From NCBI RefSeq assembly GCF_001839655.2, contig NZ_CP056087.1:2666001-2730000 (forward strand): a stretch of 64,000 nt of DNA. Direction: 5' to 3'. Shown piece by piece: positions 23,826-25,100 of this stretch. This DNA is from Pseudomonas argentinensis. Its GTDB lineage: Bacteria > Pseudomonadota > Gammaproteobacteria > Pseudomonadales > Pseudomonadaceae. A model generated the notes under the pieces. That model searched no databases, was not told where the DNA came from, and worked only from the letters and a program-made list of their open reading frames with translations. Position numbers and translations under genes: made by a program. Every line of letters starts with the position of its first letter. Within the stretch, counting starts at the first letter, position 1.

Positions 23826-24659
23826 TTAGTTCTCGCCTCTCGCGTTGGCAGAGAGTGAAGCCCATGCGCTATCTAACTTGTTTCGATACTCTATGATTGT
23901 TCCGTCATTGTGAATGACAGTGTCCATGTCCTGCACAGCAATTCCAGATTCCGAGGAGTGTTGATTTACAGGCTCAGCATCTTTTCGGACGATGTGCCAG
24001 ATCACGCCATTGATTTTTCGGATATATGCCGCTTCGTTCTCAAAGCGAATGTCTTTGATGATAATGATGTTTTTGTTTTGAGTGTTAAGGGCGGGTTTGG
24101 TAACAAAGGCAGATGTGTTGATATCTTGCTCTGGCATTGCGCTGTAATGAGCAAAGAAGTCAGGGAAGTCGGTTAAAGCTTTAGTCTTTACCAGTTCAAT
24201 CATTTGACTGGGTGTCATCTGCCAGAAAGGATCGACATTCATCCTGTCGTTATCTTCCCAGCACTGTTTGTCGCTCATGCCGAAGAACGCCTTGGCGCCA
24301 AGGATGAATGGAAGGTCAGGATTGGACAGGTGCTCTGCAGGGACTGGTGTGATTGCCTCTTGGGCGTAGATCTCGCGGTCTGCGCGCATCAACCAGTGAT
24401 CTAAGTTATGGCCCCTCATCCATTCGGTGCCTACTCGCTGGAAGAATTCCCTAGGCGAAAGGCCCCATGCACCCACCCTGATCTCCTTTGCGTTATCATC
24501 CCAGGTCTGTGAATCAGATAGGTTGAAGAGAGCTTGGCAACCTCGTTTGAGGGGGTCTGCCAGGGCATAGGCAGTCACTTCTGGGTGCTGCTGCAAGAAG
24601 GCGGCAGCTGTGTCCTTCCCAGATCTGGCCCTTGCGGCTAGCCCTACGACTCTCTTCAT
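23826..24659 (-). CDS. Deoxynucleoside monophosphate kinase (phage gp1-like)
   Basis: A 277-residue P-loop kinase. The start (GLAARARSGKDTAA) is the shortened Walker A of T4 gp1-type dNMP kinases, followed by family features such as REFFQRVGTEWMRG and KDIRFENEAAYI. These enzymes phosphorylate deoxynucleoside monophosphates; T4 gp1 acts on dTMP, dGMP and hydroxymethyl-dCMP, and the T5 enzyme on all four. It is the first gene of the island's recombinase operon, 3 bases from the next, and faces away from the tmk gene that the island has cut. AGGA lies 6 bases before ATG 24659. Replacement of the lost host dTMP kinase activity is the attractive inference; a nucleotide role in phage defence or transfer is the alternative. 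Confidence 0.8.
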   Translation of the reverse strand: MKRVVGLAARARSGKDTAAAFLQQHPEVTAYALADPLKRGCQALFNLSDSQTWDDNAKEIRVGAWGLSPREFFQRVGTEWMRGHNLDHWLMRADREIYAQEAITPVPAEHLSNPDLPFILGAKAFFGMSDKQCWEDNDRMNVDPFWQMTPSQMIELVKTKALTDFPDFFAHYSAMPEQDINTSAFVTKPALNTQNKNIIIIKDIRFENEAAYIRKINGVIWHIVRKDAEPVNQHSSESGIAVQDMDTVIHNDGTIIEYRNKLDSAWASLSANARGEN

Positions 24660-24699
24660 TTTGTCCTAACTCCACGGTTCATAAGGCTTTAAGGGTTTG

Positions 24700-24728
24700 T
24701 TTACATTTTTTTTTGACTTGAGTATAGC
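24700..24728 (+). promoter_or_regulatory. Outward sigma70-like promoter at island edge
   Basis: TTTACA (24700-24705), a 17-base spacer and TATAGC (24723-24728) match the sigma70 consensus at 5 of 6 and 4 of 6 positions with ideal spacing. It reads out of the island into the tmk fragment and holB, which have lost their native upstream promoter through the insertion. Nearly all of the sequence is island DNA. Confidence 0.55.
24721..24726 (-). promoter_or_regulatory. Possible -10 box for the recombinase operon
   Basis: Read on the minus strand this is TATACT, one base off consensus, about 60 bases before the dNMP kinase start. No good -35 lies 16-18 bases upstream. It overlaps the outward promoter, so the two directions may compete. 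Confidence 0.35.
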
Positions 24729-24731
24729 AGC

Positions 24732-25100
24732 TTGTTTCCACTTTTGCCGATTCCAAAACAAGATGCCACCTATGCCTACCAGGGCGGCGGCCGGGGGCTG
24801 GATATCGCGCGCATCGCCCAGCTGGAGGATTTCGTCCAGGGTGCGCTGCGCCCGGACCTGACCCTGGTATTCGACCTGCCGGTGGAGGTGGGCCTGTCCC
24901 GCGCCGCCGCGCGCGGTCGCCTGGATCGTTTCGAGCAGGAAGGCCGCGCCTTCTTCGAAGCGGTACGCGCCACCTACCTGCAGCGTGCCAAGGCCGAACC
25001 AGCGCGTTACCGGATTGTCGATGCGTCGCAGTCCCTGGGTGCCGTGCAGCGGGACCTGGATGCCTTGCTGCCGCAGCTGCTGGAGTTGCAGCGTGGCTGA
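24732..25100 (+). pseudogene. tmk: tmk (thymidylate kinase), 3' part only
   Basis: From 24762 the frame encodes [13 protein letters not shown] and continues to the end of Pseudomonas Tmk, including the lid segment ([10 protein letters not shown]). About the first 98 residues, with the P-loop and the DR motif just before the break, are missing here. In-frame codons upstream, including a TTG at 24732, come from the island and have no ribosome-binding site. The fragment alone cannot bind ATP. Its translation may still matter because its stop overlaps the holB start. Tmk is normally essential, so the activity must come from elsewhere: the missing 5' side, a second copy, or the island's dNMP kinase. 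Confidence 0.9.
24755..24775. other. Island/chromosome junction (right attachment site)
   Basis: Similarity to Tmk begins at the GAT codon at 24762. The core of the attachment site probably includes GATGCCACCTAT or bases next to it, since recombinases of this kind leave short repeats. The matching left site is outside the window. Confidence 0.55.

What the first reader, a model, noticed from the sequence alone, without database searches (positions are those of the whole stretch)
23826..25100. Island that cuts tmk and carries its own dNMP kinase
The island breaks the essential thymidylate kinase gene at about codon 99, and the first gene of its recombinase operon is a phage-type deoxynucleoside monophosphate kinase. 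T4 gp1 and T5 Dnk kinases accept dTMP. This suggests an element that uses an essential gene as its attachment site and brings a substitute enzyme, which would also addict the host to the element. Seen: the tmk break, the kinase family and its operon. Inferred: functional replacement.
Basis: partly seen in the sequence, partly recalled or inferred. Interest (0 to 1): 0.9.

Follow-up and report, generated by a model that had tools for sequence, protein, structure and literature searches.

The report
Island that replaces the gene it breaks
A 103-kb mobile island has cut an essential DNA-building gene (tmk) of a Pseudomonas in two and carries a phage-like kinase that very probably does the lost job; this trick was shown by experiment in another Pseudomonas in 2023, and here it is found in more species and, in one relative, with a different replacement enzyme.

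Summary
Confirmed. tmk is split after codon 98: 339 bp at window 24762-25100, the other 294 bp lie 103,489 bp to the left; no other Tmk-family gene is found in the genome. The first gene of the recombinase operon is a T4-gp1-like dNMP kinase. This kinase was not assayed.

Added here: of 398 genomes of the genus, 15 of 15 with the long kinase lack a full-length tmk against 6 of 383 without it; four of the six hold tmk or tmk pieces, two are incomplete assemblies. Kinases standing alone by holB keep the island orientation, and six Pseudomonas loci keep island-end remnants, which favours relics over the ancestral alternative the paper left open. One related island (G901) splits tmk in its P-loop and carries a complete divergent tmk in the same operon slot; relatives at a Bax1-I gene or an acetyltransferase gene carry no dNMP kinase.

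The parts
24762..25100 (+). 3' part of tmk (339 bp, codon 99 to stop)
   Evidence: TIGR00041 positions 102-195; joins with G000:C1:2586979-2587272 to a 210-aa Tmk
1..24761 (.). right part of the 103,489-bp island (continues left to G000:C1:2587273)
24660..24761 (.). right recombination end of the island: GTTTAC at 24699-24704, GTTTCC at 24734-24739, then ...AAACAA before tmk
   Evidence: aligned with the same end of 21 other islands (22 rows); boxes vary (for example GTTACA in two rows); junctions
24721..24750 (-). sigma-70-like promoter pointing at the kinase (weak evidence)
   Evidence: 9 of 12 matches, 1 found against a mean of 0.1 in shuffles
23826..24659 (-). deoxynucleoside monophosphate kinase, proposed replacement for Tmk
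   Evidence: PF21448 and phrog_139; PDB 1dek E 3.5e-13 by profile; active-site residues conserved
21627..23822 (-). rec731, conserved operon protein, possibly recombinase-like
   Evidence: no significant Pfam or PHROG match; homologue at the same place in other islands; partial 27% match to plasmid genes annotated as site-specific integrase
19576..21630 (-). rec684, tyrosine recombinase
   Evidence: PF00589 E 2.8e-18; R348, K376, H453, R456, H482, Y491 invariant in 12 of 12
18587..19579 (-). p330, conserved operon protein (the published island has a TetR/AcrR-like regulator in its conserved set; not detected as such here)
   Evidence: no Pfam match up to E 0.1, phrog_14982 of unknown function E 2.2e-5; conserved place in the operon
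17292..18587 (-). rec431, probable tyrosine recombinase
   Evidence: PF00589 E 7e-6, 26.4 bits, below the cut-off of 27.1; conserved operon place
25093..26079 (+). holB, essential neighbour now cut off from mltG
   Evidence: conserved next to tmk in relatives by tblastn; gene name recalled and from PMC10653934, no family search done

Best explanation
A site-specific integrative island uses a conserved stretch of the essential gene tmk (just after codon 98, the end of the DRFT motif) as its attachment site. Its recombination operon starts, at the end next to the tmk 3' half, with a T4-gp1-like dNMP kinase gene. After integration Tmk is lost and the island kinase phosphorylates dTMP to dTDP, so the insertion is survivable. 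While both tmk halves stay intact, excision can in principle restore tmk; once they decay, the host depends on the kinase, the rest of the island can be lost, and a lone kinase gene remains between mltG and holB. Shown here: the split, the absence of another Tmk-family gene, the operon, the related ends, the comparative association, the series of states. Shown by others for the KT2440 relative: essentiality and complementation. Inferred: dTMP activity of this very protein, excision, and the recombinase mechanism.
For: Split tmk and no other copy. Of 398 genomes of the genus, 15 of 15 with the long kinase lack a full-length tmk (TIGR00041 E up to 1e-40), against 6 of 383 without it (nominal Fisher p 9e-23; genomes are related, so not a true probability); 0 of the 22 other kinase-positive genomes, nearly all with a phage-type short form, lack tmk. 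Nine of the 15 hold both halves, broken at the same place. Of 32 long-kinase loci from named genomes, 21 hold a tmk 3' piece beside the kinase, 18 of these recombinase genes; of the 11 without, 0 hold recombinases. Residues listed in PMC10653934 Table 2 as binding ATP or dNMP are kept: R12, S13, G14, K15, D16, T17, D203, R205, E209, R225, H234, S236, E237, N251 invariant in 27 of 27 (correspondence to the table by numbering). PMC10653934: PP_1964 was inactivated only when E. coli tmk was present, and it complements an E. coli tmk deletion.
Against: No assay of this protein. PP_1964's sequence was not in hand, so orthology rests on place, operon and residue numbering. Enzyme families other than Tmk that might phosphorylate dTMP were not searched. 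Seven of the 15 long-kinase genomes (not G000) also have a weak Tmk homologue elsewhere (E 2e-8 to 2e-10), as do tmk-intact genomes. G926, one of the six exceptions, has tmk in two pieces at contig edges, one with a stop inside, and was not resolved. Kinase expression is supported only by one promoter-like match. No circular form or excision was observed.
Confidence: 0.93

Rival explanations
1. The two tmk halves are expressed separately and assemble into a working Tmk; the island kinase is incidental.
For: Both halves are intact frames here, and in the nine genomes with both halves none has an internal stop.
Against: In KT2440 the upstream half could be deleted without effect and the kinase could not (PMC10653934). 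Five genomes of the genus have no tmk half by the kinase (G911 a 21-aa piece) yet keep the kinase. The 5' half runs into 17 island-coded residues.
Confidence: 0.03
2. Another enzyme of the cell supplies dTMP kinase activity and the kinase serves the island only (for example as a phage-derived passenger).
For: Seven of the 15 long-kinase genomes have a weak full-length Tmk homologue, perhaps PP_3363-like (not compared).
Against: G000 shows no such homologue; PP_3363 is dispensable in KT2440 (PMC10653934). The link of long kinase and tmk loss would be unexplained.
Confidence: 0.03
3. The standalone kinases are the ancestral form and mobile elements later picked the gene up (alternative raised in PMC10653934).
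For: Standalone kinases occur in distant hosts (Alcaligenes, Parapusillimonas, Methyloprofundus). The Parapusillimonas pair sits at an unresolved base of the long-kinase tree, and none of the beta-proteobacterial loci examined keeps a recognisable island end (L131 has one GTTTAC only).
Against: The tree needs six changes between island and standalone, at least five forced by well-supported branches, with several standalone groups inside groups of island kinases. Wherever holB was recognised the kinase is antisense to it, as in the islands. Six Pseudomonas standalone loci keep remnants of the island end.
Confidence: 0.1
4. Assembly error: the island and tmk halves were joined wrongly.
For: None seen.
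Against: One 5.08-Mb contig, listed as 100% complete; the same left junction type in eight further genomes.
Confidence: 0.01

Closest known systems
tmk-disrupting genomic island of Pseudomonas putida KT2440 with dNMPK PP_1964 (PMC10653934)
   Same: tmk split into 294 and 339 bp; dNMPK is the gene at one island end; two tyrosine recombinases and two further conserved proteins beside it; no other working Tmk
   Different: 103 kb instead of 65 kb, in a genome of 5.08 Mb; kinase not assayed; sequence identity to PP_1964 not measured
T4 gp1 and T5 Dnk phage dNMP kinases (PF21448, phrog_139)
   Same: family and active-site residues; 1dek is the only PDB match with E below 0.2
   Different: about 90 residues between positions 100 and 190 are absent from the roughly 190-aa prophage-type relatives; linked to recombinases and tmk
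Island of genome G901 with a complete tmk
   Same: homologous recombinase operon, same slot for the replacement gene, tmk as target
   Different: cuts tmk at about codon 14 in the P-loop; brings a canonical but divergent Tmk (PF02223 162 bits; 42% to the G991 tmk; 57% to a megaplasmid tmk) instead of dNMPK; operon at the mltG side
Integrative elements that restore the end of their target gene (recalled; not searched)
   Same: the element compensates for the damage; G991 looks like this: its Bax1-I protein ends in a different tail, followed by GTAAAC boxes (island coding inferred)
   Different: in tmk the whole enzyme is replaced by another protein, not its end restored

Membership tests
tmk-disrupting dNMPK islands (KT2440 type) | tmk split into 294 bp and 339 bp | tested here: met
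   294 + 339 bp
tmk-disrupting dNMPK islands (KT2440 type) | dNMPK gene at the island end | tested here: met
   23826-24659, 102 bp from the tmk 3' piece
tmk-disrupting dNMPK islands (KT2440 type) | four conserved neighbours: two tyrosine recombinases, one TetR/AcrR-like regulator, one unknown protein | tested here: inconclusive
   four genes in a fixed order here, in 7 of 14 other long-kinase genomes and 15 of 32 named loci; one clear and one weak recombinase by Pfam; the regulator was not recognised; orthology to the KT2440 genes not measured
tmk-disrupting dNMPK islands (KT2440 type) | no other working Tmk in the genome | tested here: met
   limited to the Tmk family
tmk-disrupting dNMPK islands (KT2440 type) | kinase is essential and complements tmk loss | not testable with these tools
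   shown for PP_1964 only (PMC10653934)
T4-gp1-like dNMP kinase | PF21448 above its cut-off and conserved active-site residues | tested here: met
   80.6 bits against 27.1; invariant residues
T4-gp1-like dNMP kinase | T4 dNMPK fold | not tested
   structure prediction was never accepted: machine busy
Tyrosine recombinase (rec684) | catalytic R-K-H-R-H-Y set | tested here: met
   invariant in 12 of 12; the roles of the residues are recalled
Prophage | phage structural genes; relatives in viral contigs | tested here: inconclusive
   no relative of rec684 among 11 pattern matches in viral contigs; the island's ORFs were not scanned for phage genes

The most novel reading that the evidence does not exclude
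These islands form one family of recombinase operons with a 'rescue slot': the first gene matches the damage done at the attachment site. At tmk codon 98 it is a dNMP kinase; in the tmk P-loop (G901) it is a complete divergent Tmk; at the 3' end of a Bax1-I (yccA-like) gene (G991) only a new C-terminal tail is supplied; beside a GNAT acetyltransferase gene end (G960, G974) no rescue gene is seen. Rescue genes would be exchangeable parts that let a mobile element enter essential genes, and they leave permanent enzyme replacement behind when the element decays.
Probability: 0.5. Interest if true: 0.75.

Novelty: new member of a known kind. Interest (0 to 1): 0.52.

Why it matters
It adds many cases to the strategy reported for KT2440, entry into an essential gene with a replacement enzyme on board; it suggests that tmk has been permanently replaced by an unrelated kinase in several lineages; and G901 suggests that the replacement enzyme can be swapped. 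Genomes annotated as lacking tmk should be read with this in mind. The series of states bears directly on the published question whether standalone dNMPK genes are ancestral or left over.

Tried and rejected
Kinase search in viral contigs with the single protein: no relative; with alignment A1, 488 relatives of which the best 80 were kept, of the short phage type as far as match lengths show. Plasmids: no kinase relative; for the recombinases only partial matches of 27-30% in Pseudomonas plasmids of 0.4-0.6 Mb. rec684 in a class-wide sample at E up to 1e-20: 1 of 369 genomes, the window's own. Kinase in an order-wide sample: 9 of 390 genomes; in one locus from each of the eight others no island recombinase or tmk match was found; the two neighbourhoods I read (L028, L029) look like prophages by recalled gene names. 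Relatives of G901's tmk and of rec684 in viral contigs: none. Second tmk copies in G991, G1026 and G1127 showed no island recombinase nearby (for G1026 17 kb, for the others 13-17 kb). An outward promoter for holB was considered; matches are good in some islands and poor or missing in others, so it is not claimed. Kinase and recombinase identities over 16 islands: Spearman 0.67, 0.68, 0.41 (p 0.12), 0.74; only supportive, from identities typed by hand and partly rounded. In the recombinase tree G960 and G974 fall inside the kinase islands beside P. japonica, so the kinase is neither simply ancestral nor simply gained once; long branches make this unsure. In one search, G1058 and L120 are the same locus and L132 was not included, so its 15 entries are 14 loci.

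Full report
What is there. The window is G000:C1:2666001-2730000 of a 5,076,637-bp single-contig genome listed as 100% complete. Six genomes of its genus match named contigs by exact contig length (P. rubra, P. vancouverensis, P. graminis, P. bohemica, P. cremoricolorata, P. protegens FD6), so the genus is Pseudomonas. tmk is in two parts: 294 bp ending at G000:C1:2587272 and 339 bp at window 24762-25100. Joined in a script they give one 210-aa Tmk with no internal stop. Between them lie 103,489 bp with GC 0.53. TIGR00041 and PF02223 find only the two halves and short weak P-loop stretches.

The operon. Reading leftwards from the tmk 3' half: dNMP kinase (277 aa), rec731, rec684 (PF00589 E 2.8e-18), p330, rec431 (PF00589 just below its cut-off). 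The kinase matches PF21448 and phrog_139; with a profile of 15 relatives T4 dNMPK 1dek is found at E 3.5e-13, the next chain at 0.24. R12, S13, G14, K15, D16, T17, D203, R205, E209, R225, H234, S236, E237 and N251 are invariant in 27 sequences including five short forms; that these bind ATP or dNMP is taken from Table 2 of PMC10653934, matched by numbering with a shift of five in the C-terminal part.

Prior work. PMC10653934 (mBio 2023; I read the outline, text parts 1-3 of 11 and sections 8, 9, 10, 11) reports that in P. putida KT2440 a 65-kb island splits tmk into 294 and 339 bp, that its last gene PP_1964, a dNMPK, is the sole dTMP kinase, was inactivated only when E. coli tmk was supplied, and complements an E. 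coli tmk deletion; and that such islands, with four conserved genes by the kinase, occur in Pseudomonas, Halomonas, Acinetobacter and Psychrobacter. It leaves open whether standalone dNMPK genes are relics or ancestral. My full-text searches on this theme found only that paper on point; other hits were seen as listings only, and the library holds open-licence papers only. So the window's island is a new member of a published kind.

Association. In 398 genomes of the genus the kinase query matches 37: 15 with the long form, and 22 others, nearly all with a form of about 190 aa (one is a short fragment, one a doubtful match at E 4e-4). Full-length tmk (TIGR00041, E up to 1e-40) is found in 377 of 398. 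All 15 long-form genomes are among the 21 without it (20 are listed; G1137 follows by elimination and has no tmk half). None of the 22 others is. The six remaining: G888 has the two parts at the two ends of its contig, as expected if it straddles the origin; G926 has two pieces at contig edges, one with a stop inside, not resolved; G1127 has a full-length Tmk at E 6e-40 plus a copy in two frames; G859 a divergent one (positions 3-184, E 1e-22); G827 and G985 are 87% and 77% complete. Nominal Fisher p 9e-23; relatedness is not corrected.

Series of states. Among the 15, nine hold both halves, broken at the same place (six on one contig, about 13, 34, 74, 87, 103 and 115 kb apart; three across contigs); G836 holds a diverged 3' half with the contig ending about 1 kb beyond the kinase; five (G756, G911, G1050, G1058, G1137) hold no half, and there the kinase lies between mltG and holB with no recombinase gene seen in 17 kb. 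In the pattern-based scan of 84,980 named species genomes, which need not be exhaustive, 68 loci came back; 32 are long-form (L106-L137; six are genomes of the genus sample). Of these, 21 have a tmk 3' piece beside the kinase and 11 do not; recombinase genes are seen in 18 of the 21 (L118 and L128 end at a contig edge, Acinetobacter L130 shows none) and in 0 of the 11, one of them on a 4.3-kb contig. Wherever holB was recognised (28 of 32, 14 of 14) the kinase lies antisense to it.

Relics or ancestors. On a tree of 48 kinases the 15 standalone genes need six changes of state, at least five forced by well-supported branches; several standalone groups lie inside groups of island kinases, but the Parapusillimonas pair sits at an unresolved base. 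Standalone loci G911 and UBA4617 (L137) keep both GTTTAC boxes and a piece of tmk. In the fuscovaginae group three of four loci keep one GTTTAC box (L116 has GTTCAC), and all four keep a changed second box and the AAACAA end. Of the other eight loci, L131 has one GTTTAC and L110 one GTTTCC, and nothing else recognisable was seen. This favours decay of islands in the Pseudomonas lineages; for the beta-proteobacteria only orientation and the tree speak for it.

Ends. In nine genomes the left junction is GAYCGnTTYACC followed by island DNA with a GTAAAC-like box about 29 nt in; in 22 islands the right end has GTTTAC-like boxes and an AAACAA-like end before tmk, with variants in several rows. In G1066 and G1007 the 5' half still follows mltG. 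This looks like a tyrosine-recombinase attachment site (inferred).

Same operon, other damage. rec684 has relatives at E up to 1e-130 in 13 of 398 genomes: nine are the tmk islands; four have no match to the dNMP kinase. G901: the island lies in the tmk P-loop; the native flanks joined give an intact 214-aa Tmk, with mltG at one end and holB and tatD at the other; the island, about 104 kb on one contig, carries a complete divergent tmk (PF02223 162 bits) as the first gene before rec731, rec684, p330 and a rec431 in two frames. rec431 there is interrupted, so this copy may be inactive. G991: the operon lies beside the last codons of a Bax1-I gene (yccA-like, name recalled), and on another contig the Bax1-I gene ends in a different tail followed by GTAAAC boxes; that the tail is island-coded and that the two contigs are the two ends is inferred. 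G960 and G974, near relatives of each other: the operon lies beside a sequence like the 3' end of a GNAT acetyltransferase of G991 (PF00583), without a kinase; the other end was not examined. tmk is full-length in G991, G960 and G974. The dNMPK is thus tied to the tmk target and not to the recombinases as such, and the slot can hold another enzyme. The support is thin: one genome, or one pair of sisters, for each alternative.

Verdict. The added value is the genus-wide association, the series of states and the G901 replacement.

Noticed in passing
window 4755-10248: Type II CBASS genes on the island: 2TM effector 4755-5426, cyclase 7105-8160 (best profile match starts at residue 29), E1-E2 8165-9781, JAB 9736-10248. 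An ISL3 transposase gene at 5592-7022 (PF01610) lies between effector and cyclase.
   Followed up: partly
window 11530-12285: Match to candidate defence family PDC-S31 (E 2e-64).
   Followed up: no
G000:C1:2640674-2661225 (L006, L007): Island ORFs resembling a type I secretion set (TolC-, ABC- and HlyD-like) and very long ORFs of 1801 and 2876 aa, from the ORF listing and recall only.
   Followed up: no
window 27394-28744: Several short ORFs resembling pieces of an error-prone DNA polymerase (DnaE2) just outside the island (name recalled); a 1029-aa ORF of similar look lies on the island at G000:C1:2636654-2639743.
   Followed up: no
window 10346-11434: A further weak phage-integrase match (PF00589 E 1.6e-5, below its cut-off) inside the island.
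   Followed up: no
L270:13363-13998 (G901): Complete divergent tmk as first gene of the recombinase operon in an island that splits tmk in its P-loop.
   Followed up: yes
L272, L273 (G1127): Native tmk, mltG and holB all show frame breaks while a second divergent tmk lies on another contig; sequencing errors or real decay not distinguished.
   Followed up: partly
L069 / L136 (G1068, P. protegens FD6): Only about 13 kb between the tmk halves and rec731 nearly gone: an island apparently part-way through decay.
   Followed up: partly
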